DNA from: Tetracentron sinense
Taxonomy: Eukaryota; Streptophyta; Magnoliopsida; Trochodendrales; Trochodendraceae
Assembly (NCBI GenBank): GCA_015143295.1
Contig: CM026565.1
Span: 32,744,052-32,808,051 of the forward strand
DNA length: 64,000 nt
Reading direction: 5' to 3'
Below are positions 39,286 through 64,000 of the stretch, one piece after another. Numbering within the stretch: position 1 is the stretch's first letter; each line of letters starts with the position of its first letter. The notes under the pieces were generated by a model. It saw nothing but the letters and a program-made list of their open reading frames with translations, did no database searches and was not told the origin of the DNA. A program made the position numbers and the translations under genes.

Positions 39286-39489
39286 TATTGCCACCGGAGA
39301 GGCGAGAGGGTTTGGAGTTGCCCTGACACGATCGTAACTTGATTTTTATCGGGCAACGGATCTGGCAGATTCTCGAGATTAACACTTGGGCACCACTCTT
39401 TGCATGACACGTGGGAAGACATTTTAACTAAGGGGAGTGATAGCATGAAATGCACATTCCGTTGAGTGGTAACACACACCTCCCAAGCT

Positions 39490-39760
39490 TGCCACATGTC
39501 CTCTTTGACATCTATTAACCGTGGTTAAGATTCACTCATACCTAGGGTTAAATAATAACCTTAGTTTTTAGAAAAAATATTTTTAAAAAATTAACCTTGA
39601 TTATGATTTCACTCATTCAAGTGATTACTTTTTAAAGATATTTCTCTAAAAACTAAGATTAGATTATTTAACCCTAAGGTGGGTGGATCTTAACCACAAT
39701 TAATGGGTGTCAAAAGCACAAGTGGCAAGCTAGGAAGGTATGCAAACTGTCTAACGGAAC
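39490..39760. repeat. Foldback repeat of the GGTTAAGATTCACTC family
   Basis: Left arm TTAACCGTGGTTAAGATTCA... AACCTTAGTTTTTAGAAAAA and right arm in inverse order to 39700. Relatives are at 32200-32340, 40290-40410, 41800-42030 and 46620-46860. Confidence 0.6.
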
Positions 39761-40000
39761 ATGCGAGATGCATGCTCTCACTTCCTTAGTGGAACACCAT
39801 TCCACGTGAGTGGTGCTCTAGTGTGAATCTCGGGCATCTGCCAGAGGTAATCCGTTTCCTTTTTATCGGGGAAAAGTTTAATTAGAAGTGTGCGGTACTT
39901 AAAAGGTCCGAGATTTAGAATGGAACTTGAAACTTCCATCTTTGTGGAACTTTTACAAATTATGGAACAATAAAGTTCCAAGACATTAGCAAAAGAACAA

Positions 40001-40966
40001 GGGGAATGCTACCCCAGATTCTTTGATTCTCACTTTCTTTAAGAAGCCGACACGTGCACTTGCTTTTCCCGGCTGCTTTTGCAGCCGGTTAAAGCTTTCC
40101 TACCGTACTTATAATGCTCTACCCCTTCTTAAGTTTAATATTTATAAAAGAAACCCCCAAAAGTACGGTGACATCAAAATAAAGGTTCTCCAAATACGGA
40201 CAACATTAATAACTTTCTCTCTTTTGCTGTCTAAACACAAGGAGATTAGATCACAAGCCAATTGCGATTGAACTGGGGAGGGTGCAGTTCAATCGCACCC
40301 ACACGTCAACATGTGATCCTGTTAAATCCTATTAATTGTAGTGAAGATTCGTTAACCCTTAGGATTAAATGATTTAACCTTGATTTTTAGAAAAAAAAAA
40401 ATATTTTTAAACTAACAGGGGTAGAGCAAGTTTAAACTAAAAATATAATTTAAAAAAAATAATAAAAAAAATTAATAATTTTTTTTTTTAAATAATAAAC
40501 TAAAAATAATAATTTTTTAAAAGATATAACAAACTAAAGAGCAAGTTTAAACTAAAAATATTATTTTTTTAAAAAATAATAATTTTTTTTTTAAAATAAT
40601 AATTTTTTTTAAAATAATAATTTAAAAAAAAAATAACAACTAAAGAGCAAGTTTAAACTAAAAATATTATTTTTTTAAAAAATAATAATTTTTTTTAAAA
40701 AATAATAATTTTCTTAAAAAATAATATTTTTAAAAAATAATAAACTAAAAACATAATATTTTTTTTTAAATAATAAAGTAAAAATAATAATATTTTTAGT
40801 TTAAACTTGCTCTACCCTTGTTAGTTTAGAAAACAATACAAGGGGTAGAGCATAATAAATACAGCAGGAAAGCTTTAGTCGACTGCTTTTGCAGTCGGGA
40901 AAAGCAAGTGCATGTGTCGGCTTCTTAAAGAAAGTGAGAATCAAAGAATCTGGGGTAGCATTCCCC
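40001..40966. mobile_element. 966-bp Mutator-like foldback element
   Basis: Perfect outer ends GGGGAATGCTACCCC and GGGGTAGCATTCCCC. Inverted repeats extend about 140 bp (AAGAAGCCGACACGTGCAC; CTTGCTTTTCCCGGCTGC) and are highly similar. A perfect 9-bp duplication AAAGAACAA is at 39992-40000 and 40967-40975. The interior is AT-rich with repeats of GCAAGTTTAAACTAAAAATA (40430-40810). Confidence 0.9.
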
Positions 40967-41393
40967 AAAGAACAAATGTGGAACAATGAAAGTACAGAAA
41001 AGGCGATCTATCGACTTCCTATGATTTTTAACAGTATTTTCATCAACTTTTAACTTCCACGACAGCAAAAGTCTAACTTCCAGCGTCCAAGAAGTCTATC
41101 CATCAGTCAATAACCCCTAAACAAAGCTTCATTGAAAATGGGAACATTCTAAACCAACCATAAACCCTAGAAATTAGCATTCCCCAAAGAACAAATGTGG
41201 AACAATGAAAGTACAGAAAAGGCGATCTATCGACTTCCTATGATTTTTAACAGTATTTTCATCAACTTTTAACTTCCACGACAGCAGAAGTCTAACTTCC
41301 AGCGTCCAAGAAGTCTATCCATCAGTCAATAACCCCTAAACAAAGCTTCATTGAAAATGGGAACATTCTAAACCAACCATAAACCCTAGAAAT
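40956..41393. repeat. 219-bp tandem duplication including the edge of the foldback element
   Basis: Unit 1 is 40956-41174 and unit 2 is 41175-41393. Both start TAGCATTCCCCAAAGAACAA and end AAACCCTAGAAAT. I see one difference (ACAGCAAAAGTC versus ACAGCAGAAGTC). The first 11 bp belong to the foldback terminus, so duplication followed insertion. Confidence 0.93.
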
Positions 41394-44155: not shown

Positions 44156-44638
44156 CTACTCCTTTCGGCTACTCAATCGGTATGAGCTCTTCAGTTCATG
44201 CCACAAGCAAAACAATGTGTCAGAGACATCATCATCCATATTACCTTCTCCTACCCTTGAGACAGCTAACAAGGTCTTGAACCATTCTTCGTGGACAGTG
44301 GAGAACTCCGATCTCTGTTCACTTGACCTGAAGTTTTCTCCAATAGACTCTTTCATAACTTGGCTAGCCTTTGAAGCGGCTTCAACCACCTGTTTTGGGA
44401 TCCCAGCCATGAGTGCTACTTGCAGTCCATAGCTCTCTGGGCATGCTCCTGAGGTGAGCCGGTACAGGAAAACCAGCTCCTGATCACCTTTAAAGGAGCT
44501 ATTGGTTTTTGGCTTAAAGGTACAGGCCATATGTTGCAGTGTCACATGAGGATGAGAAGCAAATTCCTTTGTGAGAGGGTGGTAGTGGGTGGCAAATAGT
44601 AAGCGGCATTGGACTTTTTCAACAAGATGGCGGAATAC
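44156..44638 (-). CDS. MSH7: MSH7 last exon and stop
   Basis: This is a 483-bp exon, 160 codons plus TAG at 44158-44156, after acceptor TTTTCCAG. It begins [20 protein letters not shown] and contains [19 protein letters not shown] and the final [16 protein letters not shown]. No clear polyadenylation signal was identified downstream. Confidence 0.95.
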   Translation of the reverse strand, partial: VFRHLVEKVQCRLLFATHYHPLTKEFASHPHVTLQHMACTFKPKTNSSFKGDQELVFLYRLTSGACPESYGLQVALMAGIPKQVVEAASKASQVMKESIGENFRSSEQRSEFSTVHEEWFKTLLAVSRVGEGNMDDDVSDTLFCLWHELKSSYRLSSRKE

Positions 44639-47600
44639 CTGGAAAATTATTCAAGAATGATTTATTAAAAATGGCAAACATACAGTACAAGGGAAAAGTC
44701 ATGAACAACCAGATGTTTGTGTTGAGAGCTAGCAGGACTGATCTTTGTGCAGAACTTAAACATGTTCTCCCAATAATTGGGCTAATTGATTACTCTCCTA
44801 TGCTTCAAAGATCAGCTATTTGTCTCTGTATTTTCATGTCGAGTATTCTTTTCTGTAGGGTAACAGAAAAGTCTTGTGCTATAGACAAGATAAAAAAGAC
44901 ATTATACCATAATACATTTTCCTCTCTAAGATGGATATCCATTCATGTCGATATACATGGAAAGCAATTAATACCAGTGGCCTATAAATAACAAAAAGGT
45001 TCATATCCCATACATACATCAAAAGATAAGGCATAACATAAAATATAGGAATGGCACACAAAAGATAGGGCATAACATAAAAAATAGGAATGGAACATAA
45101 AATATAGTGCATAACATAAAATATCTTATCCAAATTTTCAGATGGTGAAATGTATATAGGAATGGCACATAAAATATTTTTTACAGGTCAGATGATTATG
45201 AATTTAAAAAAAGAGAAAAGAAAGATCATCTTAAATTTTGACAGACAAGCTGATTTAATCCCTCTAAAAGGTATCCCACAGAGTCTCAGGCTCCCATCCT
45301 CTCTGGTATATATATGCACTTATGCTATTTAGATTCTTTGGAAGCCATATATATGCTCTAGAGCATTTATATTAGAATAGATCTATTAAACACTATAGAT
45401 CATAGCCCAGCTTAATTCTGTTCAGAACATAACCATTAGTTTTCCTCACGTGTGGCAGGCCCATACATGTGATATGCATGCCGAGCAGGTGAGCAAAAAT
45501 TTTCAGTTATGCCAGAAGTTAATTAATCTGATCATCATAACTGATTAAGCTATTAAACTTTTCCAGAGGTTGTAACACTTTTGATTTTCCATACAAATGG
45601 AAAGTGTTAGAACATGAAGTTACAATGATTCAAGTTCAAAAACTTGACTTGACTTGGAAGTTAGCCGGGTCGAGTAAGCTGGAAGACTCGAAAAAAACTC
45701 GACTCAGCCGACTCGGAAATATATATATGTGTGTGTTATAAAACTCTAGATAAAAAAAAATATATATATCTAACATTTCAACAAAAGTATTATCAAATAA
45801 CAAACATTCATGATAGATATTAAAAAACCTCAAACTAAAGCACCACTACCACTAACAAACAAGATTAGCGTCTCTAACAATTTGTGGCAATAATAATTTT
45901 TTTTTTTTTTCAGCCAAACCAGACAAACAATTTTTTTGGAGCATTTTTTCTCCAAGACTAGGTTATGTTATGGTTTTGTTCTTGTAAAACAGAAAAGGAT
46001 CCGTTGTTGATCTGTTAATAACGAACAGAGTAAGCCTACTTTGTTCCGGCCTACACATTTGGGATTTGTTATAGACCATGCTATGATGGTAATGGAAGGC
46101 GGCTACCATGTTGTGACGACTGTGATAGAAGGGGTAATACAAGTCATCGTGATTGCTTTAGTGAAGAAAATTCATCATACATGTGTCTCGTTAAAAACTC
46201 GCTCGAGTCGAGTCAATAAACTGACCCAACTCGGCTTGATTCGTCCGAGTTTTCTTCGATTATTCATAACTGAGTTTTTCAAGCAAGTTGACTCGAAACC
46301 CAGCCGAGTCAAGTTGACTCGGCTGAGTTTCAAGTCAACTCGCCGAGTTTTAGTACTATGGATTCAATAGTCTAATAATCCATCGATGATGAATTTCACA
46401 ATCTGCATGTGCCTCAAGGTATATATTTATGCATGTATTCAGGGGCGGAGCCAGGGGGTGGCCATGGCCCCCCCAAATTTTTTGTAATTCCTTATTGCAC
46501 TAGTATGAATAGTGGGCTCGTCAATTAAAAATAATAATTTTAGTATACTTGCCCCCCCCCCCCCCCCCCCCCAATTGTTTTTTGTCATATATATAGTGGG
46601 CCCCCCAATGGAGTCCCCTTATGCCCTTGAGGTTCCCACATGTCCCTATTGACACCCCTTAACTATGGTTAAAATTCACCCAATCTCAGGGTTCACCTAC
46701 TTATCCTTGGTTTTTAGAAAAAAATATTTAAATAATTTTAACCTTAAGTGTTAGTTAATTTTAAACTAGGGTTCAAAATGAAATTTGATACTTTTTTTTT
46801 AAACCAAGGATAGGTGGGTGAATCTTAACCACAATTAAGGGGTCTTAATAGGGATACGTGGCGACCTCAAAGGCATTACCGGGGAAAAAAAAAATCTCAA
46901 AATAAAAAAACTACCCCAAAAAAATTTTTCTCGGGGGCTACGTCCCTGAACCCCCCAAATTCCATACCCTCAAATCAATTTTTTTTTTTTTTTTATACAT
47001 GTATTTTGGCCCATCCCCCCCCCCCCCCCCAAAGAAAATTCCTGGCTCCGCCCCTGCATGTATTTATGTAGCATGCATGTATCTGTTGCACATGTACATC
47101 TTAAGCAGAAAACCTGAAGAAGTTTAAGATATTTGGAGTTCTGGACTAGGCCCTAGGATGAGTAATGACAACACTTGAGAAGGAAACAGACAGGCTAAAA
47201 AGTTTTAGGAGTAAAAGAAATTGAGTAAATTTGTAAGTTGAAACGATTTATGTTTAGTTATGGAGAAGAAAACGGTAAAGCATTAATAAGTAGTAGTGGA
47301 AAAGGCTCAATACTCACAGCATATGCAATGGCATATCCATCGAAAGTGCTTGTTCCTCGACCTAGTTCATCAAGAAGAACCAGAGAATCTTGGGTGGCAC
47401 TTTGAAGAACTGATGCTGTTTCCATGCATTCAATAAAAAAGGTACCTACAGTGAATGTTACAATGATCAACTTCACAGTTTGAAAAGCTCATGTATAATC
47501 AATATATAAACTCTTGGTCTCATGTGCATACATTCTTCAAAATGGCTGAAGTATCAGAGAAAGACAAGTGTCAGACTCCGACATTCCTTGGGTTCTAGTA

Positions 47601-50600
47601 AGACACTTCAGAATTTCCTTCTTTAGCTTTTATTGAACAGCATAAACTAACAATCACATGTATTGGAATTTCTATGTTTTCTATAGTAAGTTTCTAGGTT
47701 GCAAATATAACAAGAATTTCTTCTGACTTTGTCTATAGGTTATATCATATATGATACAATGGATAATGCTAGGCCCTCTTTCCTTCTATTCCACTTTCCC
47801 CTTTTCTGAACAAGACAAAAAAAAAATGTAGTGGACCCCAAAAAAAACTGCAATATTTTTTGCCTTGTTGTTCAAAAAAGGGGAAAGTGGATAAAAAAGA
47901 AAGTGTACATAGCATTGCCCTAATATAATTCATAAGATAACCATGCTTATCAAATATACATAAGCACACACATAAGATATCCCACTGTATAATAAAAAAT
48001 TATGCTTATTAAAATAATTATTCTCTTCTGCATTATTTAAATATCATTTTATTTCTGTATATTCAACATTTTGGTGCTCACTAGAGGGTATGCATTTCCT
48101 ACTTCTATGAGGATCCAGAAACAAAGATTAGGATATTCCTTAAACAGAAAATTTGAGACCATATTTTTTTTGGGGGGAGCAACAAGGAAAATCTAAAAGT
48201 GGCATAGCATGTGGATGTATCATATATGCTAATGATGTCGGACCCTCCAAGTCAATAGTCAAACTGGATCTCAAAATGCTACAGATCTGCCATTAAAATC
48301 CCTTTAATATTATAGTAAAATGAGCAGTTAAGAGAAAAGGCTGAGAAATTGCAAGGTTGGATGATCAAATTAGTCTGAGGTGTTAGATTTGGTAATACCC
48401 TCCAAATTATAGTCCAAGTAGATGCACAAATGTCCTGTATATTGAATAACATTGGCAGATTATTCTACAGAGTACAGACCAAGATAGGATAATAGATGAT
48501 TGCACAAACCGTCATCCCTTCTCATGGAAGTTGAAGATGTATTGCATGTATGGAGCTCCCTTCTCATGGAAGTTGAAGATGTATTCCATGTATGGAGCTT
48601 AAAACATTGACTAAAACAACTAATGACCCAGCATGTTAAACGTTAAAACAGTCAGCTAATAAGCACATTATTTGGACTAGTTGTATCTAAAAGATGTTTT
48701 AAACAGCCATACGAAATCCACAAATTCTCGATTCAGTAAGGAGAACTCACTCTCGCCTGTCATGATTCGATCAGTAGCACCAAGCCGCGTGAAGATAATA
48801 TCCACAGGTGACAGAACACACATCTCACAAGGCACGTAGCAGCCCAACTGCAAGCCAATGGAAAATTAAAAGGAAAAAAGAAAGAATTAAACATCACAGT
48901 ATCCTAACGCTCCAAATCTTTCAGCTATACTCTGTCCGTGAAGAATATAAATCTAGGTTCCACACATCAAAACAAACCTGGGCCAATATAACAGCTAGAC
49001 ATGTGGCACGCAGCAGGGTTGATTTTCCACCCATGTTTGGTCCAGTCAACAGCAAAGTACGGGGACAATAACAAGTACTGTTCTCACCAAGATGTATGTC
49101 ATTTGGGACAGGAATGCCTCCATTATCGCCAATGACATATGGATGCCACAGCCCTTTGATCTGAAGGATAGGTCCCCTAGTCTCTTGGCACAAAGTCATC
49201 GATTTGGTATGAGCAGGCAAGATAATAGGTCTGCACATAGCCCCGCATGAAGAATTTGCAGTCACTGCAAAGGATCGTAGCACATCAATACAGCTGAGGG
49301 CATGGATGACTTGAGACCATTGCATAGCTTTTTCAATAAACAACTCAATCAGAACAGATAGTGTTTCAGCATCGGAGTCTGTTACATCATGGTCCTGGAA
49401 TCAGGTACAAAGTCAGTAATCTGCTCAGAGTTCTGACATTTGTGTAATCTAAGAACTATGGACCAAGTTCAGATGGAAAATATTTTTGGGGAAAAATAAG
49501 AACACAAAAATATAGAGTTGTTCATATTCAACAAGATATTTAAATATTTTAAGAACCATAACCGTTCAGAATCTTGCATAATCTTGGTAACCACATTAGT
49601 ATCTGTAATGTCTATAAAAAAAAAGAAGGAAAAATAAAAGGAATAAAAATATGCTGAAGAAGAAAAACCAACTCAAGCTTTCGAAATGTACATACGCTGT
49701 AATATGGTAATTTTGAAGCAACTTTTTCGCTTAAGTACAGGATCTTGGAGCGAAGTATAATTAAAAACTTATAGTTAGCTGATTGAACTGAGGGTTTCTG
49801 CAAGAGCTGGAACTTCATACATCATGATTAACTTTATACACTCTTGGAATCTTGCAATGATGGGGGTTTAATAAAAAAAGGGGTCTCCATTCCTAAATTA
49901 TCTTGGAAGTATTTAACATGAGGGAGAACAACTTGTAACTATCACAGGGTTGTGGTTGTAACTTGTAAGTGAGGTTAAATCAAATTGTATCATTTACATG
50001 TCCACCACAAGATTCCATAATTGGTAAAAGAGATTTCTCCATACAATTAACAAAAGAAAGACGTCACACCAAAACTTCCCTAGTATGACCACTTGGTTCA
50101 AGCAACTTAATCTGCAACCCACACATCAAGTCTGTGAGTATTTTTCCAAAGATATTGGGAACATATTGCTAGCCTCTTCCACTCTGTAATTTGTTACAAC
50201 AAACAATTTAAAAACCAACCGTCAGACTTGGCATTTATGTTTTCAATGATGAATAACCTTGAAATTGCAAAATTCTAGAACAAGAGAACGCAGTGAGTCA
50301 CATCAGCACGTGATTCATTACAAAAAAAAAACACACAAGAAATGGCCCAAGGTCTTCTACTAAACCTAGTTATGAATCAACATTTTATATTGAATAGAAT
50401 TATAGCAGAAATTCTCAAACATACTTATATCCAATAACATAGGAATGGTGCCAACCTGGTATTTGGGGAAGTCACTATCAACAGCTGCTTCAAACTGGGT
50501 AAGAAGTTCATCAAGACCATTACTACCACTTAGCATTGGAAGGTCAACAACTATTGATAACGACAAAATTCCATTCTCTTCTTTTTGTAAAATCATTAAC

Positions 50601-53600
50601 AAGTCCATTCCACTTCGTAGTCCTTTAACAAGAGTTCCAAATACCTTCACCTGTATCACAGAAAAAAGACTACATAATTGATAACTTTAAACAAAAGAAT
50701 TGATCAAATGATTTCTTTTTCTTTTTCTATAACTACAAAATGTGAAGTATCTTATTTTTGTAGTTCATAATTTTAGTGTTCCAGTGACGAGTGTAAAATG
50801 TCAGCTACAGACAGCATGCTGAGTCTAAATGCTACAGTAAAGGAGACAATTGCTCAATGAAGGAATACTAGATTGTGTGCATTGTTTGCTTGTGGATTGG
50901 AGTTCCGTCCCATAGATGGGTTCAGAAGTGAGGGGTCTGTTACTCCTTTGGGGAGTTTGTTTCCATTAGCGCTTGCGCCACCCATGTTTATTTCCTTTGT
51001 TTTCTTGCTAGTAGTATTTAGTTTGCATCTCTGTAAACTGCTGTAGCTTCTCTACTTTAATATAATTTCTTATTACCGATCCAAAAAAAAAATGAAGGGA
51101 TAAAAACACTAAAATTCTTCCACTTTTGTGCTACTATGAGGAGGGAGAATAGAATCACAAGGCTTAGGATGGGAGGATCATTTGTGGAAGATGAAAGACG
51201 ATCCCCAAAAAGTTAGTAGATTATAAGAGTCTTTATTCTTTAGAAAGATTCTCTAGAGTCTCCTCAATGGAATTGATTTTCAGGTCTTGGAAGCAGATAA
51301 GAAGGATTGATTGGAAGGAAAGTTTGAAGAAGAGGTGTTGACGGCTAGAAGTCCTTAAGTGATGATAAATCCCCAAGGTCGGATATCAATGGCTTTCTCG
51401 AGAGTGCTGGGAAACCGTTAAGTATGATTTTATGGGCATCCTCTATGAGTTTATTGATAGAAAGCTTCTAATGCCTCTTTTATTACTATAATCCCCAAAA
51501 AGAAGGGCAAAGGAGTTTAAAGATTTTAGACATACAAGTTCAGTGGCAAGGACATAAAAGATTTTTACCGAGAGTCTCACAACCTCCAAAGGCACTCTAG
51601 TGTTTGGAGCTCTGTTTGGCCAAGAGAGGACACTTTCTTCTTCAGAGAGATAGAAGAATATCTTTCCCTCTTTGACAGTCTGAATGGCACCAAGATACAC
51701 CCGGAGAGGAATAATATGAAGTATGAACATCTGGAAGGAAACACAAAGGGAGACTTCAGCTTTAGAGACGTCTATGATACCTTTTTCAGAAGGAAGATGA
51801 GAGGCTCATCAATCAGCCTCTGTTTTGCAAGATATGGAAGGCACCAGACTTCCCAAATTCTCCTTCTTCCTTTAGGATGTGCTCTTTTCGTGGAACTTTG
51901 TGGCTGAACTTTTAAAATCCCGGAACTTCAAAAGTGTAAACCTGTTCTTCTACCCAAAGTTCTGGATCTTTAAAATTCCGTGGAAGTTGAAAATCCGTTA
52001 AAACCGAAACTTTATAGTTCCATGTAAAAGAGCCGGAACTTTAAAGTTCCGTCTAAATGGAACTTTTAATTGAGCGGGAGCCCAGTAAAAACCAAGCCTC
52101 TCATTCCAAATACAGTACTCCCTTCTCACATACCTCATAAGTATAAATGATATTAAGTAGATTATTGGCTTTTATTTAGGGCTGACATATATGATATGAA
52201 TACCTTGAGTCATTAAAAAAAAAAAAAACCAATTACATTCACATCGTATATTAAGAAAATAAGAGGAATTAAATTATATTTTATGATATTATAAGTACAA
52301 TTAAGATATTAAACATGAATGAGTTTTAAATGTTAAATTTCTAATCCCAAAGTTCCATGTCAAAAGAACAGTGGACTTGCAAAGTCCTAGGAATTTAGTC
52401 ATAAAGACCCACATCGAAAAGAACATAACTACAAATCTTTTAGGAATTTCAAAATCCGGATCTTTGATGTTCTAGGAACTTTAAAGTTAGAGTTCCACGA
52501 AAAGAACACAGCCTTAAAGTTCAGAAAGAAGATCTTAAAGGAGGTTGACCTTTTTTTGAGACAATTAAGAATATGGGAGAAGCTCAAAAGATAGAACCAT
52601 CTTTATTGGTTTCTACGGACTTACAGATAGATGTGGCAAGAACTTAGGATCGCAATATGGAGAAGTTGGAGGATAATTATCACAGATAGCTATGGAATTC
52701 TGAATCAGAATTTTGGATTGAATCATAGGCGAGAATTGTGAATAAACCATTCTCCCCAAGATTACTTGTATACTACATCAGGTTTTGATCTTTGTAGAGC
52801 TCTCTAAGATCCTTATGAAACATTTTTTCTTTATGAAAAATATATTCTTGTATTTATATAAATGTACGCTTTGCAAGTATAAGAGGTAATTCCCCCTAAA
52901 AGTAAAATCAAAACCTATGGTCAATACATACAATTTGACTCAAACTATTCCAATTTTTTTTTAACTTCTACAAGAGAACTCTTTAAAGAATGAATGCCCA
53001 ACTAAACAGAGTATATTCAATGCCGCTACAATTCTTCAGGAGAGAGCGTTCCAGCCCCTTCAAAATCAAGATTTCATGGTTTCTATTTTCTCAACAGAAT
53101 CGTCTTAGAGAATTCAGCTTTCTATTCCCAAAAAGACCTTTAGGCCAGCCTAAAAAGGAGACTCGTCACTTGTTGGGTTATTAAAGAGCGTGGGAGAATT
53201 TCTACTATCTGCTTCCAGATCATCATTTTTTTGGGTGTGGAAAGGAAAATGAGATGGTTAGTGAGTTAGTAGGTAAGGACGGGTTTTGAACCCAGGTCGA
53301 TGTTTCAATACTGAACGATTTTACACACTTTATCAGCATATATCAATCAAACTTTTTGCTGGTTCAATCCATGTTGGGTTGGTGAGTTGGTGACCGATCA
53401 AAGGAGTGGTTGTAAATTCTTCAAGCTCCCCTTTTTAAAATAGCACTATCGTCCATAGACCATAAGGTAGAGATCATCTTCTTCGGTGACATGAAAGGTC
53501 TTATGAATCCTCTGTTTAGTCGATAAATTTTGAGCAACCTTCTTCTGGGTTCATACCACTCTTGGAACCCATTTGCCCTTTCTAAAATCTGCAAGTGTTG

Positions 53601-56600
53601 CAATCATGGCCTTGCTTAAAACATAGAAAGCAATACAGAGATAGGAATTTGTAAAGAACCGTTTTCCATCTGCCTCTCATACCCAGCCAAATCCGAAAAG
53701 GATTATCTTTTCAACACAGGCTCGAGCAACACTAAATCTAGAGCATGCTTTTGTTGGGCAATCGATTTTAAGAACCTTCATTACTCCAGCAATTGATTTA
53801 ACAAAGTAATCTGAATGAAGTTAACAGGGAGGTTATGAAAAGATAACCAGACAAGAGAAATCGCCAGTGCCATAATTTCTTATTAAGTATGGGCCATCAA
53901 GCAAGCTAAAATAATCTTCCTCCAGGAATTATCTCATAGGTATATGCTTATGATCCAGAAACCCTAACAAGAAATCAGCCTTAAGATGTCAATGGGCTTT
54001 GATGAAATCTTGACTCGCTTGAATGGAAGGACGACTGGAGGAGCACTTACCTACGAGACAGAAAACTTGAATGGTGCAGCTGAAATCTAGTTCTCCTACT
54101 TGGAAAAAAAAAGGATGTCTAATTTTTCATGGCAGAGCTAGGTTTCTTCAATGAAACAATAGGTTGTTTTGAAATTGAGTGGCTATAACTGAAGCAAAAA
54201 TTGGAGATCAAGAAATGGAACCTACATTGACAAGGGCGGTAGTAGAAGGCTTCCCCATGGGAGCTCCAAAACCCAAGTTTATACCAAATTGTTTGCAGGA
54301 ACCCTAGCTTTTCACCGATATTTAGAACACTTTTTGAGGCCCTGAAGACAAATGAGATAGTTGTGTATGCGGCATATAAAAATCTATTTGCTATAATTCA
54401 GACCATAACAAAAATCCCACAGTAGCTAGGCCACATTATGGAACAGTGTTTCACCACTTACCCCTTTACAACCAGTGTTTTAAAAATTCGAAAATTCGAT
54501 TGGAATCCAGCTAAGAAGACTTTCAATTTAAGCCAGCAAAGAAGATTGCTCGACCCATTACAAATAGGAATTACCTTTTGTTTTCTTAGAAATTAGGAAA
54601 TAACGGGTCGAGAAAGACAAGAAAAGCCTATTTTAGACAATCAAGAAAAGGAAATGAAAACCCAAAAGGGTTGTCCTAAGAATACTGTAGTAAACACACA
54701 CAATATTGAACAAAGCAACACTCAAGATGCCCAGAAAATAACCAGTACTCAACATACAAACAAATAAAGACTTCAGAAACAAGTAAACCAAACATACTCT
54801 CTGTTTCAGAAGAAAACACAAACACTTTACAGAAACATAGCCAACATGCCCAGAAATAATCAGTACTCAACATTCAAACATACAAAAATTTCAGAAACGA
54901 GTAGACCGAACATATAAAGATTTCAGAAACAAGTAGACTGAACATACTCGCTGTTTCAGAATTTTTTTCCCAATATGTGGCAGTAAAAGTGAAGCTGATG
55001 CCCCAACACTAGCCTTAACCCGTCCAAGCAGTCTTTCTATATCAGGAAGCTTGCGCAGATATTGAGCCACGAGGAATGTTATTTCTGAATGTGTGATTAG
55101 TTCCTCAACCACATTAAGCCTCTTATTTATCTCTCCAACATTTTTCAGTGGATGACAAATCCAGCTCCTTAAAAGCCGTTTACCAGATGCTGTTATACAG
55201 CTATCAAGGTATTTGTATAGTGTACCTGAAAATCAAGAAACAAAATCCTTATTAGGATTTAGGAGTAACTAAAAAGGATCTATTGTATCATGGATATAAG
55301 GATTCCACCTCTCTAGGGATCTTGCATGCAACTAAAGACTTGTTACCACTTGCCTGAGGGACCACCATCAGCATTGTTGCTGAAAATCTCAAGATTTACA
55401 AGGGTCTGGCCGTCCATCCTGAGGCAGCCTTTATAGACTTGGTAAGGTAAAATATCCCCATTACGTAAAGCATCATCTAGCTGTTTTATAATGGAAGTGT
55501 CAAATCGCCTTTAAACAGCACATGCATATAGATGCTTTCAACGGAATACAAAACCATAGAAACAAGCTTACCATCAATCTAGACAAGTGACCAACAAGTC
55601 CACCAAGGGCATATACGGCAAGATCGTGGTGCATTACACCATCAAGTGCATAATCCCAGGCATTAGAAGACTCCTTAAAGTATTCCCTTGATTCAATCAG
55701 TTTTCTAACTTCAGAAGGCTCTGCAAAATCGGTGACTGACAGAGCTGGAGCCAATTGCAATGTTGTGGAACCTACAGGGTAAGCAAAACTTGAGCATGCA
55801 GGCCTATGTATCTCATCCTATGATTCCAATGAATTTCTAAATTTTTTTGTTCACCCACTGCTTCGAGGAATTAAGGGATTAGATGCCACAAAACAAGTAG
55901 AAGCATGGAATTCACCACGAACTGATACATAATTAATCCGATAGCAGGCAAAGCAAAGATTATTCAATATAAAATCAAGATCAAGAGCCCTAGATATCAA
56001 TTTAATAGTGTGGATGACTAATGAAGGACAAGAAGATTGACTAGAAGTCCTTAAATGTTTGAACTGGGAGCAAGATCACAAGGAACTAACCTTTCTCAGA
56101 TCCATAGTATTATATTTGATCAAAGATGCAAAATACCCACCAATCTGAGCTAACAATATTACAATAGTACATGTGCAATCCTAGATCACCTCACTCATCT
56201 TCAGCCCTTAAATTGAACTGATTCACTAATTCCAGTATCTATATCAAAAATCTGATGGGTCAACGACTGACTCCCAACACCACCTGGGAGATTTCAGTTT
56301 AAGTAATTATATCCAGGTGTATTCTCAGCTTGGTTTACATGGGTGCTCTTAACTAGACTTCGGGAAAGATGGATGACCCAATATACTAATTTTCTAAAGT
56401 GTCAAATTAACTTTTCACATTGTTTTTAAAGAGGCTAATGACATGTTGAGGCAATTAAACAAGATAAGTTTAGCCATAAGCTACATGTTTTGATGAATTT
56501 TGATCACTGCCACATGGTGCATTGGACGCCACCTAAGCCAATATCAGGATACCACATGACATATAAAACATGATCTCTCATCAACATGGCAGCCTCAAGC

Positions 56601-59600
56601 TGCTATTGATCTAGTTGGTTCCCACAAGGACCTGGAATGGCAATACCTTCTCTAAACCTTGGATAGAAACTGCGAAGGATGTAGGCTTGTAGCAAATCCC
56701 ACATGGTGACATCAAATTGTTATGGAAGTAGTTGTTCCTGTATGGTATAGAATATAGATGCTCTATCCCCGAAGCTTGTATGAGAATGGTCAGAACATAC
56801 AACATCCTGCAAGGGCTACTAACGCCTGGAGGTCTCCAGACCAAAACTCACAGTGTCAACAAGGCATCCTACCCCAAGTTTGGGTGGGACTTTTCCCCAT
56901 AGAACGAATAAGTGGGATGGTGGGCTCAACCTCTGGTATGCTGAGAGCATGTTGAGTGAGGACAATCGCATCCCACTTGGGTTACCAATGCCCTATCGAT
57001 ATGTGGATCTGATCCTAGGGGTGTAAAGGAGTTCTTGTAGTTTGGTTGGTATAGAAGAGGCCAACTTATAAGATTTGACGCCATCATCAAGGAAGTGATC
57101 CTCACTCTTGTACTATCAGGAATTCAAGATGTATACCGTTAATGGACCTTGGCTTTGTCCACCAACCATGAAATGAATAGGCATCAGTGCATCACCTTCG
57201 TCAATCCACTTGGAGAGTTGAGAACAGGAGGGAAGGACGACCGTTGATTTAGAATCCTAGACAATGGTATGTTGACGTGGTGTGTAACTATTAAGTCGGT
57301 CCAGGTGTATGTCACTGGCTAGTCCCATGGGTTATAGCTAAAAGCGTGTTTTAATAACTGGTTTATGTAACACTTAAGGGCTTCTTTGGCATCAATTCTT
57401 GAATTTTCAAAATGAACTTTGTGTTGGGAACTTGTTTGAAAACATTCAGTCATAATCCATTTTGAAGAACAGAAAAAACATAATCACGTTTGGCTGTAAA
57501 AAAAAAATTTGGATCATTGTAGACTAGTGAGGATAGGGGGTGGCAATGCTGATGGTGGTAGCAAGGGTGAAGGTGGAGCCATGGAGGTGGAGGTGGGGAG
57601 AGTGGTCGTGATGGAGGTGGTGAGGGTGGGGGTGGTGGCAATGGGGGGAGGGGAGCGGGTTGTGGTGATAAGGTTGATGGTGGTGGTGGATGTGTTGGTG
57701 GGTGGGATTCTGGTGGTAGTGTCATTAGTGTGTCATAAAATTTATGATTCTGAAGATTGATTCTCAGAAATGACTTTTTATTCCTAAAATTCTGTTCTCA
57801 CAAGTTCTGTTAGAATATTGTTGCTCTAAAATGCATCCAAATGACATTTCCAATTTTCTATTTCATGAGAACAAAAAATCACATCCTTGGCAGTGATGCC
57901 AAATGACCCCTTAAGTTACTAATAACATGTTCACGTAACTACGTAAGTGGTTATGATGTGCGCACATGGGCAGTTATAAACGATGCAATATAATAACTTC
58001 TTCCTTCTTAGGAAAAATAAAAATAAGGGCTCCTCTAGGGCTGTAAACGGAGTGGATAGTGGTAAATCTGAATTCGTATCCGATTATATATTCGAATATC
58101 CAAAAAACGAATAAATATCCAGCGGATAGGGAAATATGATATTCGTATCCGACTACATTTAAAATATTAGAATTCAGATAGCATCTGAATTATCCGATTA
58201 CTTGTAAAAAAATATAAATTAATATTTAAAAAATGTAAAAATATATAAATCTTTATTTTAAAAATAGTAAATTAATATTTTATTTCTATTTATATTAAAA
58301 ATTAAAATTCAATTTATTAAATTATGTAAAAAATATATATTTTAAAGGTTATATTAGTTTTATAAATTTAAAATATATTATATAATCGATCGTATATTTA
58401 TCAGATCGGATATACCAGTATCCAAATTCGTAGCTGATTATAAGCGGAAAGTATAATTACAATCCAAATTCGCTCCGCCGAATACCTGTTCAGATAATTA
58501 TCCAACTAAACGGATTCAGATACGAATCCGATACGGATAATATCTGCAACCGTTTACAGCCCTGGCCATTGAAAAAAATGATTCCAATCTTGAACACCTT
58601 CAATTTCTGAGTTCCCTGCGAGCTGTGTAACCACCACAGCCATCTCACTTATCCCCTCAATAATCTCAAGCTCACCTCAGTCCATCCATCTTGGTGTGCT
58701 CTTTCATTCGCCACACCACTCTCTCTTACTCTTCTCATTCTATAAGGCCATCATTCATCAAGCAATGATAGAGTATGGCTGACCCCTCAATTTAGGTTCC
58801 TGGGCCATCTCTCATTACTCATTTCATTCATAAGTAGCAGCGCCACCTAAGATTCCCAACGTCTACACCTCAAGGTTGTACAAGGTGTAGACCCAAAATA
58901 TTTAATAAATTAGGAAAAATGTAAATATATTTCAAAAATAAAATAGAAAAAATAGAAAGTTCAAAAGTGAATGAATCATTATAAAACTACGTAAGCATGA
59001 GCCATACAGATGTACCAAGCACCACTACCAATCGAGGAACCATTCACCAAATTAACTTCAAAACACATAAGTTCATATGGAGTCAACTCATAAACCATAA
59101 AAAAGGGAAAAAAAAGTCTAAGGTCTCATGCCAAAAGCCTAAAGCCAATATCTAGTACTAATGTTCTAACAAAGAGAATTGAAATCAATCTCTAAAGATC
59201 ACATTCATTCATTCATTCACTACTTGCACCTCATATGGGTAAAAGAATGACTCACCTGAAATCTTCACAATAATGCATCTTTCGCTTCAAAACTACTCAC
59301 CCTGTGATAGGAAAAGCCTCAAATTTACCTATTATAGTTGGTTGTGTATCGGTGGAGTAATTTCAAGAACGAAGACAGATTGTGTGCTAACTTTTTAGAA
59401 CATCTTCAAGCAAGAGAAATAGAAGAAATTTCCTTTGAATTTAGGATTTCAAATGCATAATTTTTTTTTTGAAAGGTTAAATTGTATAGTTGTAGGGAAG
59501 CTATGTACAAGGAGAGAAGCTCGTTTCCCAAGAAGCTCGTTTCTCAGACTCACTTCCTCAAACGGACTCGCTTCCATCACGTCCCATTTAGTCGTCAAAA

Positions 59601-60655
59601 GGAGCAATATGTGTGAAGTGATGAGGTAGACCACAGTCTATAGCCTAGGGTGTAGACTCTAAGCAAGTATTGTCGGTTTGGAACCTAAGGTAACTACTTT
59701 TCCACAAAAATCCCATGTAAGATAAAATCAAAGATATAGTACTCATAATAACATAATGGGAATAAAGAGCCTATATCTCATTTTTCGCTTCCCATTTCCT
59801 AAAGTTTTTTTGAGCCTTGCTTCCCGCTTCTTGTTTTCACTTCTCGCTCTGGTAACTATGCTAAAAGCACCTCTTTGGTTCTTAGTTCCATTGATATACA
59901 ATCAAATTCTAACATCTGGTTGGAAACTGGATCATTTTGAAGAAATAGGCATGACCTTGTGTACTGGAGATTTTAAAGGTAAGTCGCTAACTTAGTATGT
60001 AACCCACAATGATGATTTGGCAAATTATCCAAGAAGTGACAAGGAGCAAACAGCTGATCAAATGTTTTTTATATTTATTTTCATTATCCCCATTAGAGCA
60101 TCTAGTACTTGTCATTGGCTTTGGGCCTTAGGCTTGGTAATATTTATTTTCATTATCTCTATAGCATCTAGTACTTGTCATTGGTTTAAGTAAATACTTT
60201 TTTTTATACCATTAGGCTCGAGGACTTGAAGTTGGTTTTCATTATGGTTTATAGGTTTATGAGTCGCGGACTCCATACGAACTTTTTTTTTACTTAAGTT
60301 TGTGAATGGTACTTTGGTTGGCAGTAGTAATTAGTACCACTGCGCTAAAGTAATTTTCATGCATGATTCATTCTCCTTTGAACATCCATTTTTTTCAAAT
60401 TATTTTAACTTCTAAGAAAATTTGTATTTTTACCATTTTTATGACTCACCTTGTACCACCTTCAATGGAAGATGAGACTACGACCTGGAAATAAAAGGAA
60501 TGTAGGCATGTACAGTTTTCAAGAACTTTTCAAGGAAGTGGGTAGAAGCATTGCACAGACAAGTGCTTTTTATTTGCATAGGAGCTTCCACAGACAGATG
60601 TACTACAGGCCTTCAGTGCTAAAACTTGCCCAAATATATATATATATATATATAT

Positions 60656-60693
<38 letters not shown>

Positions 60694-63600
60694 CCTCAAT
60701 CATATTTCAGGCACATATAAAAAAAGGTGTAATAATTCTCACTATTAAGTACAAAGATTTACCAAATTCCCCAATAAGCTTTGTTACGATAGATTTTAAG
60801 TGAGATCCTAAGACATTTTGTACATCTACATTAAGTGTTTCAGTAGTAGAAGAAAAATCGTAGGAAAACAAATTTCTATGACCTATCAATCGGTGAAGAG
60901 GCTGAGTTTGGTTAAAAGTTCCGTCCATGGGTACACGCCTTAAAACGGCCATACACCAATCATGGGCCGAACACATAAGAGCTTGCTTGAATGCGTTCGG
61001 GATCGCAAAGATCCTTTGTAGAGACCCGAACCTTCTTTCATGCCGTTAATAGAGTTAATAAGGGTAGTTTAGTCTCATGTTTTTATGCATATTTAATTTT
61101 ATCTAAACAGTGTGATGTGGTCTAAGTGGTTTAAGTGTTAATAGGGTGAAAAATCAGAGATGATGATCGGTCGCAGGAGATCGACGATCGATCGCCCAGA
61201 ACCTGAAACCAGGGTAAGCCCCTGTTTTGTGCAACGATCGATCGCACCAACATGACAATCATTTGTCAGAATCAAGAAAATTAGAGAAGTTTCTGTTTCT
61301 TGGACGATCGATCGCCAGCGAATGACGATCGATCGCAACTCGCGAATCAGAATTTTAAAAGAGTTACGGAAATCGGGGTTTTAAACCCCCAGGCTATAAA
61401 TACTAATAGAGGTTATATTTCGAGGGTTTTAGTGTTCTAAAGGTTTCTAACCTAATTTGGCAAAGGGGAGGAGAGAACCTAGGGTTCTAAGGAAGAAATT
61501 GCTTGGAGAGGAAGGAGATTGCTTGAAGATTGCAAGAAAAGCTTGAAAATCAGCATCAACCCTTCTTGGGAGCGATTTAGATCCAAGGGAAGGATCCCTA
61601 AGGTCGATATACTATCCAACTCAACCCTATTATGATGTTTTGTGAATATTAGTATGATAGAAATAGAGATTAGATATGTTTTCCCAAATTATGCATGGAT
61701 TAAGTTGATTAGAGATGGAAATGTGGCTTAATACTATGGATGAAATGTATGGAGAATGAGAAATACTATGGAGGATGAGATGAATGTATGGATGTGGATT
61801 GTGTTTGGGTTATATGGATGGATTACGGTGTGATGAAATGTTGGAAATGGGAAAGGGCATTGTATTACTAAACTACATACCCAAGGTGTTTGTGGAAATG
61901 TTTGAGATAGTAGATTTTAATATGACACTATGGATAATTGTGAAATTGATAATGAATTACGCCAAGGAATCATGATAAGGTATATATATGTGATTGCTTG
62001 TTAAATTATGCCTAATTATTTTGCATGGAAATTGATATTCGGGTAAGCCAATACTTCGAGGAAAATCTTTCAAACCGGGAATTCTCTAACTATTTAGTAT
62101 GAGTCAGTATAGTGGAGTTTCCATGGTGGGAGATCGGAATCTAAGCGTTGACCGATTCGAATGTTAATTGCGACACTTATGCACAAACTCAAGTGTATGT
62201 TAAAATAAAAGTCTCACAAGTCACACATGTGGACCACAAGCATAAACATTGCATACGCCTGATAGACTGAATAAGCCTAATAAGGGATTTGAATAAGTGT
62301 ATGTTCTGAATAAGCTGCTCAAAGACTCATAAGCATAAACATTGCATACGCCTGATAGACTAAATAAGTCTAATAAGGGATCTAAATAAGTGTATGATCT
62401 GAATACGTGCATAAGCATAAGAATCTCACAAGCACGTGGTCTCATAAGCATAAGCATCTCATAAGCATGTTGTCTCGTAAGTCTAAGATTCTCACAAGTA
62501 CACGAGTCAAGGTAATGATATTATGTATATGAGCACATGTTCTTCCGCACTCTGATTATGTTATTATGCTATTGGTTATGATCCTAACTAAGTGCAGGAT
62601 TACTATGTTGTTGGTTGGATTTTATATACACCGAGTGCTTTTGTACTCAGCCAGACTTTTGTCTTGACAGGTGTGGAGCCCGAGTTTGTAGGTGAGCCTT
62701 GGGTGGAGGAGGCTTACGGCGTAGAGGAAGAAGATGATCCTCTGGCTAAGGGAGAGCGAGAGTTAGACAGGTGGCCTTATCATTAGGCTTTTACTTTTGA
62801 GTTCTGAGAAGTTTTGTAATAGACTCTTAGATGATGTTACTTATCAGATTACTTTATAGTTGAGTATCAAACTATTTTGTTTACGGTGGGTTATGTTTAT
62901 GTTGACCATAGACTTGAACAGGATGATTTGGTTTTATATATCGGAATTTTATTACTCTCATTTTGGAGACTCGTGTTGTATGCCTTGTATGTCATGGAAT
63001 TTAAGTAGGTTTAAGAAATATGGCGACCCAAGGTCCTATTTTGGTCAAGGTATGACTTGGGGTTGTTACATCCTTAGCTTACCCGACGAACTGCTGTTGT
63101 TCATCGATACTAGCAGGAAGGATGAAAAAATGTATCTTGCTTTAGTGCATATTAGGTGAACTTGTTTACCGAGCCTAATTTTGTACAAATATGACTAGGA
63201 TTCTTGGAATTAACAAGTGGAGAATTGGTCATATTGAAGCCAAAGCTGAACCTAGAACCACTTTGACTGAAACCTCATCCCACAATATCAGCATTATCGA
63301 TTAAAATGCACAGCTATGGCTAGATCATATCATTCCTCCCATTTCATATGTATTTGCACATCTATATTATTAATTGAACCAATACAACATAAGGCATGAG
63401 ATTTCAAAATGCAACTTCATCGAATTTGACAGTAAAATTGAAACAGCATATAGTAGTCCTACATAAGGAAAAACTAGCTTAATGACACAGTACGGCACAT
63501 AAAAATATTATAATAAGAGTGCATTTAATTACAAATTCACTAATCAGAAAGGTTCCTTTGAATCCGCACCTGCTGAAGAGTACTTCTTGAGTGCCTTGTG

Positions 63601-63985
63601 AGCTTCTTTGGACAGCCCTACAACATAAATATATTTGGTTGGAATCTATGAAGCCAAGGTTTCTGGGAAACTTCCAAACAAAACTCTTACAGAAAAGGGG
63701 AATAATACCTCTGCTTTCATATAGAACTTCCTTAGGTGATACCTGAAATCAAAACCCAATACAGAAAATAAAATAAAAAATTAAAATTAGTGAACATTAT
63801 CAGAATGCACATTTTAAATTTTAAAAATAGGAAGGTGGAATAAAAGAGCTTACTTGCATCAATAAAGCTCCCAAAGCCGCACAAGAAGCATCATCATATA
63901 TGGAACCAACCCAAAATTTTAAAGCAGCACAATCAACGAAAGCAAATCCAAATACAGTTGAACCATTCTCCAACCCACAGCTCCC
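44156..63985 (-). CDS. MSH7: MSH7 DNA mismatch-repair protein (MutS homologue), 3' part
   Basis: MSH7 is a plant-specific MSH6-like MutS protein. It pairs with MSH2 (MutS-gamma) in the nucleus and binds base-base mismatches; this is known for the family. Eleven exons: 63985-63854, 63742-63709, 63617-63570, 55771-55572, 55480-55354, 55225-54948, 50650-50456, 49394-48978, 48847-48751, 47445-47318, 44638-44156. They total 2139 bp, 712 codons plus TAG, with no internal stop. Visible in order: connector region ([16 protein letters not shown]), lever/clamp core ([11 protein letters not shown]), Walker [10 protein letters not shown], the [14 protein letters not shown] signature, Walker [17 protein letters not shown], switch ATHYH, and C-terminal [18 protein letters not shown]. 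The N-terminal PCNA-binding and mismatch-contact domains (about 400 residues in known members) lie beyond base 64000. The length and the [13 protein letters not shown] tail favour MSH7 over MSH6. The gene looks intact. Confidence 0.93.
44639..46431. other. MSH7 intron, unassigned part
   Basis: AT-rich. Repeats of ATAACATAAAATATAGGAAT (45035-45125) and GACTCGGCTGAGT-like words (45640-45720; 46195-46350). Confidence 0.45.
46440..47056. mobile_element. 617-bp hAT element in MSH7 intron
   Basis: Ends CAGGGGCGGAGCCAGG and CCTGGCTCCGCCCCTG with a perfect 8-bp duplication CATGTATT (46432-46439; 47057-47064). Inside are two C runs (46553-46572; 47017-47031) and a nested foldback repeat (about 46615-46880). 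Confidence 0.92.
47318..47445 (-). CDS. MSH7: MSH7 exon with Walker B
   Basis: This is a 128-bp exon, [18 protein letters not shown] through [19 protein letters not shown], with acceptor ACTGTAG and donor GCT|GTGAGT. It carries the ABC signature and the Walker B Asp-Glu. Confidence 0.95.
47763..47921. mobile_element. Small MITE, relative of 10749-10919
   Basis: Ends ATAATGCTAGGCCCTCTTTCC and (reverse) GGCAATGCTATGTACACTTTC, with the GTGGACCCC centre also seen in the other copy. Target duplication unclear. Confidence 0.55.
48751..48847 (-). CDS. MSH7: MSH7 exon
   Basis: This is a 97-bp exon, [19 protein letters not shown] through ATDRIMTGE, with acceptor ACTTGCAG and donor GAGA|GTGAGT. It carries the MutS FTRLGATD block and ends in phase 1. 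Confidence 0.93.
48978..49394 (-). CDS. MSH7: MSH7 exon with Walker A
   Basis: This is a 417-bp exon (139 codons) after acceptor GATTCCAG, from [15 protein letters not shown] to CLAVILAQ at donor CAG|GTTTGT. It holds [19 protein letters not shown] and the nucleotide-binding P-loop [15 protein letters not shown]. Confidence 0.95.
50456..50650 (-). CDS. MSH7: MSH7 exon
   Basis: This is a 195-bp exon (65 codons), [19 protein letters not shown] through [13 protein letters not shown], with acceptor GTGATACAG and donor CAG|GTTGGC. Phase is 0 at both ends. Confidence 0.9.
50840..51090 (+). mobile_element. LINE 3' UTR fragment
   Basis: Reads TTTAGTTTGCATCTCTGTAA, then CTTATTACCGATCCAAAAAAAA, like a LINE 3' end with poly-A at 51081-51091. 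Confidence 0.5.
51400..52000 (+). mobile_element. LINE RT and zinc-region remnant
   Basis: Plus-strand text shows DRKLLMPLL and [14 protein letters not shown] at 51455-51530, matching the RT start block (PKK.GA.E..DFRP) with changes, followed after a deletion by [14 protein letters not shown] (about 51745), typical of the 3' region. Confidence 0.5.
52000..54726. other. MSH7 intron, mostly unassigned
   Basis: GGAACTTT-type words until 52500, then no recognised element. Confidence 0.4.
54727..54961. repeat. Tandem copies of an MSH7 exon end and splice donor
   Basis: ATGCCCAGAAAATAACCAGT through TACTCTCTGTTTCAGAA (54727-54811) recurs as 54846-54961, the second ending inside exon 55225-54948. 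The intronic copy repeats the exon's last bases and donor (minus: CTGAAACAGAGA|GTATGT versus CTGAAACAGCGA|GTATGT). Confidence 0.85.
54948..55225 (-). CDS. MSH7: MSH7 exon (core/lever domain)
   Basis: This is a 278-bp exon starting [20 protein letters not shown] and ending GKKILKQR at donor CGA|GTATGT. It contains [15 protein letters not shown], typical of the MutS core. The end of this exon and its donor have been copied into the adjacent intron (see the repeat at 54727-54961). Confidence 0.9.
55354..55480 (-). CDS. MSH7: MSH7 exon with GC splice donor
   Basis: This is a 127-bp exon, [20 protein letters not shown] through [15 protein letters not shown]. Its acceptor is AAAACAG. Its 3' boundary reads CCCTCAG|GCAAGT: the only in-frame join to the next exon (CTLYKYLD-type sequence after TTTTCAG) uses a GC donor. 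GC-AG introns with otherwise perfect donor context are a known minor class. Confidence 0.88.
55572..55771 (-). CDS. MSH7: MSH7 exon
   Basis: This is a 200-bp exon after acceptor CCCTGTAG, encoding [15 protein letters not shown] through [14 protein letters not shown]. The donor is ATG|GTAAGC. It aligns with the MSH7 core domain I remember and ends in phase 0. Confidence 0.9.
55772..57370. other. MSH7 intron, unassigned part
   Basis: From 56590 to 57330 the base composition is more balanced and short frames occur, but no known domain was recognised. Confidence 0.4.
57378..57910. mobile_element. 533-bp MITE with a GGTGGT-rich core
   Basis: Ends GGGCTTCTTTGGCATCA and (reverse) GGGGTCATTTGGCATCA; TTAA on both sides (57374-57377; 57911-57914). 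PIF/Harbinger elements duplicate TWA, so this is the likeliest group. Core 57535-57720 is G-rich. Confidence 0.65.
58037..58565. mobile_element. hAT-like MITE, AT-rich
   Basis: Ends AGGGCTGTAAACGGAGTGG and (reverse) AGGGCTGTAAACGGTTGC with CCGATT/CGGATA words inside. No clean 8-bp duplication found. Confidence 0.6.
59485..59862. mobile_element. Second copy of the GGAAGCGAG hAT MITE (inverted)
   Basis: Matches 11146-11568 in reverse along its length: ATAGTTGTAGGGAAGC at one end, CTCTGGTAACTATG at the other. Target duplication not evident. Confidence 0.75.
60634..60691. repeat. (TA)n(GA)n compound microsatellite
   Basis: TA repeat 60635-60655 followed by GA repeat to 60690. Confidence 0.95.
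60707..61016 (-). pseudogene. Endogenous mitovirus-like RNA polymerase relic, downstream part
   Basis: This minus-strand frame, open from the solo LTR edge to the TGA near 60707, contains HDWCM, then DGTFNQ..P and a following FSYD.SS. stretch. These are hallmarks I recognise from the RNA-dependent RNA polymerase of mitoviruses (Narnavirales-type, mitochondrial), which exist as old DNA copies in plant mitochondrial and nuclear genomes. Changes in and after the FSYD block and a missing catalytic GDD region show that it is a broken relic. The piece starts at the 5-bp duplication 61012-61016. Below about 60830 the match is uncertain. It lies in a 7.8-kb MSH7 intron, sense to the gene. The alternative is a mitochondrial DNA insert carrying it. 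Confidence 0.72.
61394..61402 (+). promoter_or_regulatory. LTR TATA box
   Basis: CTATAAATA about 380 bp into the solo LTR, following the GATCGATCG repeat cluster; placed as a Pol II core promoter. Confidence 0.55.
62238..62410. repeat. About 100-bp duplication in the solo LTR
   Basis: CATAAACATTGCATACGCCT then GATAGACTGAATAAGCCTAA occurs from 62239 and again from 62334. Confidence 0.88.
63071..63194 (-). pseudogene. Endogenous mitovirus-like RNA polymerase relic, upstream part
   Basis: Across the solo LTR, the minus-strand frame continues upstream in the same register when one copy of the duplication is discounted. It reads a GK.R motif directly at the LTR edge, as expected just upstream of the block seen at 61016. 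It stays open for about 41 codons up to a TAG at 63197-63195; beyond that nothing recognisable remains. Confidence 0.6.
63570..63617 (-). CDS. MSH7: MSH7 short exon
   Basis: This is a 48-bp exon, [16 protein letters not shown], after acceptor GTTGTAG and before donor CAG|GTGCGG. It is followed by a 7.8-kb intron that contains the mitovirus-like relic and a solo LTR. Confidence 0.86.
63709..63742 (-). CDS. MSH7: MSH7 micro-exon
   Basis: This is a 34-bp exon, [11 protein letters not shown] plus one base, between acceptor GATTTCAG and donor GAG|GTATTA. It joins in frame to both neighbours and matches the conserved VSPKEVLY block. It is too short for ORF finding but supported by homology and splice sites. 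Confidence 0.85.
63854..63985 (-). CDS. MSH7: MSH7 exon (first in window)
   Basis: This is a 132-bp exon (44 codons) between acceptor ATCTTAG and donor CAA|GTAAGC. It holds [19 protein letters not shown] and then [11 protein letters not shown], matching the connector domain of plant MSH7. Phase is 0 at both ends. Confidence 0.9.
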
Positions 63986-64000
63986 CTAAGATGAAATCCA

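What the first reader, a model, noticed from the sequence alone, without database searches (positions are those of the whole stretch)
60707..63194. Mitovirus-like polymerase relic in an MSH7 intron, split by a solo LTR
Two minus-strand frames, 60707-61016 and 63071-63194, carry adjoining parts of one mitovirus-type RNA polymerase (GK.R at the edge of one; HDWCM and DGTFNQ..P in the other). The 2054-bp DNA between them is a TG...CA solo LTR with a perfect TCCTT duplication, and the frame register agrees across it. Order of events: RNA virus sequence entered the genome, an LTR retrotransposon inserted, then LTR recombination removed its body. It may have come directly by reverse transcription or via a mitochondrial DNA insert.
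Basis: partly seen in the sequence, partly recalled or inferred. Interest (0 to 1): 0.9.

Follow-up and report, generated by a model that had tools for sequence, protein, structure and literature searches.

The report
Decayed mitovirus fragment in plant intron
A short, broken piece of an RNA virus's polymerase gene sits inside an intron of a DNA-repair gene in the tree Tetracentron sinense and seems to have been cut in two later by a jumping gene; such virus fossils are already known from many plants, so this is one more example.

Summary
The window matches Tetracentron sinense; the minus-strand gene is MSH7, and the finding lies in a 7.8-kb intron, 55772-63569. Frame 60707-61016 holds a genuine mitovirus-type RNA polymerase fragment: Pfam PF05919, E 4.4e-14, 52.8 bits against a cut-off of 25, profile positions 94-170 of 497, no reverse-transcriptase family among the hits. 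Block 61017-63070 is 2054 bp, TG...CA, with TCCTT on both sides and no repeat joining its ends: most likely a solo LTR. Its edge coincides with the edge of the Pfam match, and the reading register agrees at both TCCTT copies. The second piece (63071-63194) has no significant similarity of its own; it is assigned by position and register only. The matched part is about 220 bp: a fragment, not a gene. Whether it came through mitochondrial DNA (the documented route where plant nuclear copies could be traced) or directly is undecided: no plant mitochondrial genome or second Trochodendraceae genome was reachable. Nuclear and intronic mitovirus relics in plants are published. New member of a known kind; interest low.

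The parts
60707..61016 (-). Piece 1: open frame with mitovirus-type RNA-dependent RNA polymerase similarity (matched part about 60797-61018; the 90 or so bases before the stop have no similarity)
   Evidence: PF05919 E 4.4e-14, 52.8 bits, cut-off 25; no reverse-transcriptase family among hits at E<=10
61017..63070 (+). Probable solo LTR of a retrotransposon, 2054 bp, TG...CA; orientation only guessed from a TATAAATA at about 61395 on the + strand
   Evidence: ends, TATA; no repeat joins the two ends; 61018-63070 has one copy in the window; six frames, no Pfam hit; chance
61012..61016 (.). Target-site duplication TCCTT, left copy
63071..63075 (.). Target-site duplication TCCTT, right copy
63071..63194 (-). 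Piece 2: DNA that adjoined piece 1 before the insertion; open in the matching register, no significant similarity of its own
55772..63569 (-). MSH7 intron (GT...AG) that holds the relic, in the same strand sense as the gene
   Evidence: tblastn of the deposited T. sinense protein and of Nelumbo MSH7; splice sites read by hand
44159..63985 (-). MSH7 exons in the window (later part of the gene; earlier exons lie beyond the window end)

Best explanation
It is a non-functional endogenous viral element: a fragment of a mitovirus RNA polymerase gene (77 of 497 profile positions) that became part of an MSH7 intron of Tetracentron sinense, most likely carried in on a piece of mitochondrial DNA, because that is the documented source of plant nuclear copies where it could be traced. 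Later an LTR retrotransposon inserted into it, making the TCCTT duplication; recombination between its two LTRs left one LTR. It is spliced out with the intron and has no protein function. Shown: polymerase similarity, intron location, insert ends and duplication. Inferred: route of entry, LTR recombination, splicing in the plant, lack of function.
For: PF05919 hit E 4.4e-14 with no competing family. Flanked by MSH7 exons; the deposited T. sinense protein matches 100% over 98% of the 80-aa query and its record lies on a contig of 40 Mb, so not a loose viral contaminant. Insert with TG...CA, TCCTT on both sides, no repeat joining the ends, no Pfam domain in six frames, edge at the Pfam-match edge. 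Register agrees at both TCCTT copies. Mitochondria-to-nucleus transfer is documented for plant copies (PMC4393810, parts 1-2 of 4 read; PMC12548735 section 9). LTR elements are abundant in this genome, Gypsy 20.5% (PMC7709256, passages).
Against: No other mitochondrial gene trace: 6 frames of 55776-60301 gave no Pfam hit at E<=0.1, 10 flank ORFs (of the 41 listed) none at E<=10, two more only an unrelated match at 0.22, no Rfam family in 55000-64000, no tRNA in the window. G+C of piece 1 (37.4%) equals that of intron part 55776-60400 (37.0%), so it gives no mitochondrial signature. Piece 2 has no similarity of its own. No relative of piece 1 was found in the protein database. No second copy of the LTR was seen, as the genome search did not complete (and eleven earlier tries).
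Confidence: 0.85

Rival explanations
1. The polymerase fragment entered the nucleus directly by reverse transcription of mitovirus RNA, with no mitochondrial DNA step.
For: No mitochondrial gene, tRNA or Rfam family was found beside it.
Against: Plant nuclear copies that could be traced came with mitochondrial blocks (PMC4393810). A short mitochondrial insert need not carry any gene, so the negative result is weak. I did not search for a poly-A tail or a target duplication of the relic itself.
Confidence: 0.2
2. The Pfam match is a false positive; the frame is a reverse transcriptase or chance.
For: PF05919 is known to draw in reverse transcriptases (PMC12548735, passages). Two protein searches found no relative.
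Against: E 4.4e-14, about twice the cut-off score, with no reverse-transcriptase family among the hits at E<=10. Searches admitted only proteins of about 57-180 and 332-1055 aa sharing short exact words, so they missed the size range around 305 aa, the mean of plant mito-like copies.
Confidence: 0.02
3. The 2054-bp block is not a solo LTR but another kind of insert, or the ends and duplication are chance.
For: TGT...ACA pairs with a perfect 5-bp repeat occur 2.8 times per simulated intron (40 simulations), and 10 of 40 simulations had at least one with 8 or more of 12 inverted end bases, as here. No second copy seen.
Against: The edge coincides with the edge of the polymerase match and the register agrees across it; no Pfam domain inside in six frames; a TATAAATA at 61395.
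Confidence: 0.12

Closest known systems
Plant mitovirus NERVEs / mito-like EVEs (Bruenn et al. 2015, PMC4393810; Brown and Firth 2025, PMC12548735)
   Same: Partial mitovirus polymerase in a flowering-plant genome; nuclear copies known; fragments common
   Different: No paper in the library holds mitovirus with Tetracentron sinense or Trochodendron or with solo LTR; this one is split by a probable solo LTR
Arabidopsis AT2G07749 / ATMG01110
   Same: Nuclear mitovirus polymerase sequence in a plant
   Different: The Arabidopsis copy is a 244-aa protein, 96.8% identical to a mitochondrial copy and reported to have a function (PMC12470139, passages), although the 2015 paper found only the mitochondrial copy transcribed; this one is a short broken fragment
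Soybean mitochondrial rps10 intron insert (PMC3576410, passages)
   Same: Mitovirus polymerase fragment inside an intron
   Different: That intron is mitochondrial; this one is nuclear

Membership tests
Mitovirus-derived endogenous element of plants | Significant similarity to mitovirus RNA polymerase | tested here: met
   PF05919 E 4.4e-14 for piece 1; piece 2 none
Mitovirus-derived endogenous element of plants | Embedded in host chromosomal DNA | tested here: met
   Between two MSH7 exons
Mitovirus-derived endogenous element of plants | Groups with the plant clade of Duamitovirus | not testable with these tools
   No mitovirus sequence was found to compare with
Mitovirus-derived endogenous element of plants | Derived from a mitochondrial copy (co-transferred mitochondrial DNA) | tested here: inconclusive
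   No mitochondrial gene trace; no plant mitochondrial genome at hand
Mitoviridae (intact virus genome) | Whole polymerase frame | tested here: not met
   77 of 497 profile positions; nothing more in the flank ORFs tried
Solo LTR | TG...CA ends and 5-bp target duplication | tested here: met
   by chance not rare
Solo LTR | No second LTR and no internal domain | tested here: met
   None of 11 direct-repeat families joins the two ends; six frames without a Pfam hit at E<=0.1
Solo LTR | Same sequence flanks full-length elements in the genome | not testable with these tools
   Genome search unanswered

The most novel reading that the evidence does not exclude
A mitovirus RNA was reverse-transcribed and integrated straight into the nuclear genome, without a mitochondrial DNA intermediate, which would need viral RNA to meet a reverse transcriptase outside the mitochondrion.
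Probability: 0.2. Interest if true: 0.45.

Novelty: new member of a known kind. Interest (0 to 1): 0.2.

Why it matters
It adds an early-diverging eudicot (Trochodendrales) to the plants with a nuclear mitovirus relic, and the insert gives an order of events that could help date the relic if the site is compared with Trochodendron. It does not change what is known about how such relics arise.

Tried and rejected
Relatives of piece 1: protein search of 103 aa, no candidate; search with the region option so that longer proteins were admitted, 25 candidates, none with E<=1; viral contigs by peptide patterns, 18 stretches, none confirmed; genome contigs with a 72-aa part, 188 stretches, none confirmed; motif patterns in viral contigs: 0 hits, 7 hits on contigs of 9.4 to 104.6 kb, best tblastn E 0.086, none a relative. 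Control that the protein database holds plant proteins: (234 proteins of 344 candidates, best 120 listed).

Fold of piece 1: mean pLDDT 56.1, pTM 0.29; viral fold library 3 matches at E<=10, best E 7: uninformative. PDB by sequence: one match, E 0.21, unrelated. NCBIfam: none. PHROGs: two matches to piece 1 at E 0.2 and 0.23, not significant.

Open frame as a sign of youth or constraint: a 74-codon open frame occurs at 77 of 8614 starts in the flanking intron, so the openness is at most mild evidence of recent arrival; not relied on.

G+C as a mitochondrial signature: rejected, piece 1 37.4% against 37.0% for 55776-60400.

Full report
What was claimed.

Host and gene. A protein search with an 80-residue MutS III exon returned a Tetracentron sinense protein (deposited as a hypothetical / DNA mismatch repair protein) at 100% identity over 98% of the query, then MSH7 proteins of Nelumbo, Tasmannia, Magnolia and others (234 proteins of 344 candidates, best 120 listed). 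Pfam gave MutS II (E 3.5e-4, below the curated cut-off) for 1 of 2 gene frames, and MutS III (3.2e-25) and MutS V (7.1e-8 and 8.2e-18) for 3 of 6 frames; the other frames gave no MutS hit. The best solved relative of one exon frame is MSH6 (E 1.1e-12). Mapping the T. sinense and the Nelumbo protein to the window places the relic between the exon ending near 63570 and the exon starting at 55771, with a GT donor and an AG acceptor (read by hand). The intron is 55772-63569, 7798 bp. Gene and relic read in the same direction (minus).

Piece 1. [quoted passage not shown] The only other family at E<=10 is unrelated (0.19). This profile is known to attract reverse transcriptases (PMC12548735, passages), but no reverse-transcriptase family is among the hits. 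The similarity stops about 90 bases before the stop codon. No further polymerase piece was found in the flank ORFs tried: two and 10, out of 41 listed. HMMER's filters drop weak matches, so remote remains are not excluded.

The insert. 61017-63070 is 2054 bp, starts TGTAGAGACCC, ends GGGTTGTTACA, and has TCCTT on both sides. None of 11 direct-repeat families in 60400-63700 joins its two ends; 61018-63070 has a single copy in the window apart from an internal 78-bp repeat; six frames give no Pfam hit at E<=0.1, though one internal frame taken alone gave FeoB_C at E 0.019, below its cut-off. A TATAAATA lies at 61395 on the + strand. In 40 simulated introns, TGT...ACA pairs with a perfect 5-bp repeat at 1.5-2.6 kb occurred 2.8 times on average; 10 of 40 simulations had at least one with 8 or more of 12 inverted end bases; the real intron has one pair, this one, with 8 of 12. 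So the ends alone are weak. The Pfam match, found without regard to the insert, begins at its very edge; from the same rate, by hand, about 0.0025 pairs are expected to start within 3 bases of that edge. The register of the two frames is the same at the two TCCTT copies, a one-in-three event by chance. Together these make an insertion into the polymerase relic the best reading. That it is a solo LTR, not some other insert, rests on the ends and the missing second repeat; that such ends are typical of plant LTR elements is recalled. LTR elements are abundant in this genome (PMC7709256, passages).

Piece 2. 63071-63194 is open in the matching register and ends in GKLR at the insert. It has no Pfam hit at E<=10 and no PHROG hit. 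If the block is an insertion, piece 2 is what lay next to piece 1 before; how far the polymerase reached into it is unknown.

Route of entry. In plants, mitovirus polymerase pieces are common in mitochondrial DNA, and nuclear copies, where comparison was possible, appeared to come from mitochondrial ones (PMC4393810, parts 1 and 2 of 4 and passages). A later survey found 637 of 640 Cryppavirales-type sequences of DNA source in plants, 170 of the 637 labelled mitochondrial (PMC12548735, section 9). Here I looked for mitochondrial traces and found none: no Pfam hit in six frames of 55776-60301, none in 10 flank ORFs, no Rfam family at 55000-64000 at gathering scores, no tRNA in the window by ARAGORN with the bacterial code, no G+C contrast. 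Plant mitochondrial DNA is mostly non-genic (recalled), so this leaves the route open; prior knowledge favours the mitochondrial one.

Function. None is proposed: 77 of 497 positions, in an intron, cut by an insert. Neither MSH7 protein mapped to the window includes it. In Arabidopsis a nuclear copy is reported to matter for embryo development (PMC12470139, passages), while the 2015 paper found only the mitochondrial copy transcribed.

Novelty. Nuclear mitovirus relics are known, and an intronic mitochondrial one is reported from soybean rps10 (PMC3576410, passages). Pulsatilla, another early eudicot, has a 292-aa mitochondrial polymerase frame (PMC8905907, passages). I found no paper holding mitovirus together with Tetracentron sinense, Trochodendron or solo LTR, within an open-licence library only. 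This is a new member of a known kind.

Noticed in passing
window 51536-54050 (minus): The deposited T. sinense protein (P0001) has residues 673-796 that are gaps in at least 7 of 8 other MSH7-type proteins compared (8 picked of the 119 others listed; residues 376-402 likewise). Residues 673-807 map to 54050-53970, 53820-53680 and 51730-51536, so intron sequence was probably called as exons.
   Followed up: partly
window 39361-39845, 40404-40832, 46621-46876, 47765-47916: Self-inverted blocks (foldback-like); 39486-39598 and 46630-46745 are 75% alike, which suggests a dispersed hairpin element family.
   Followed up: no
window 40956-41393: A 219-bp tandem duplication at 99.5% identity.
   Followed up: no
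window 15385-16319: A tandem array of diverged copies.
   Followed up: no
window 61157-61336 and 62235-62508: Inside the probable LTR, repeats around CGATCGATCGC in a cluster, and 78-bp and 33-bp repeats.
   Followed up: no
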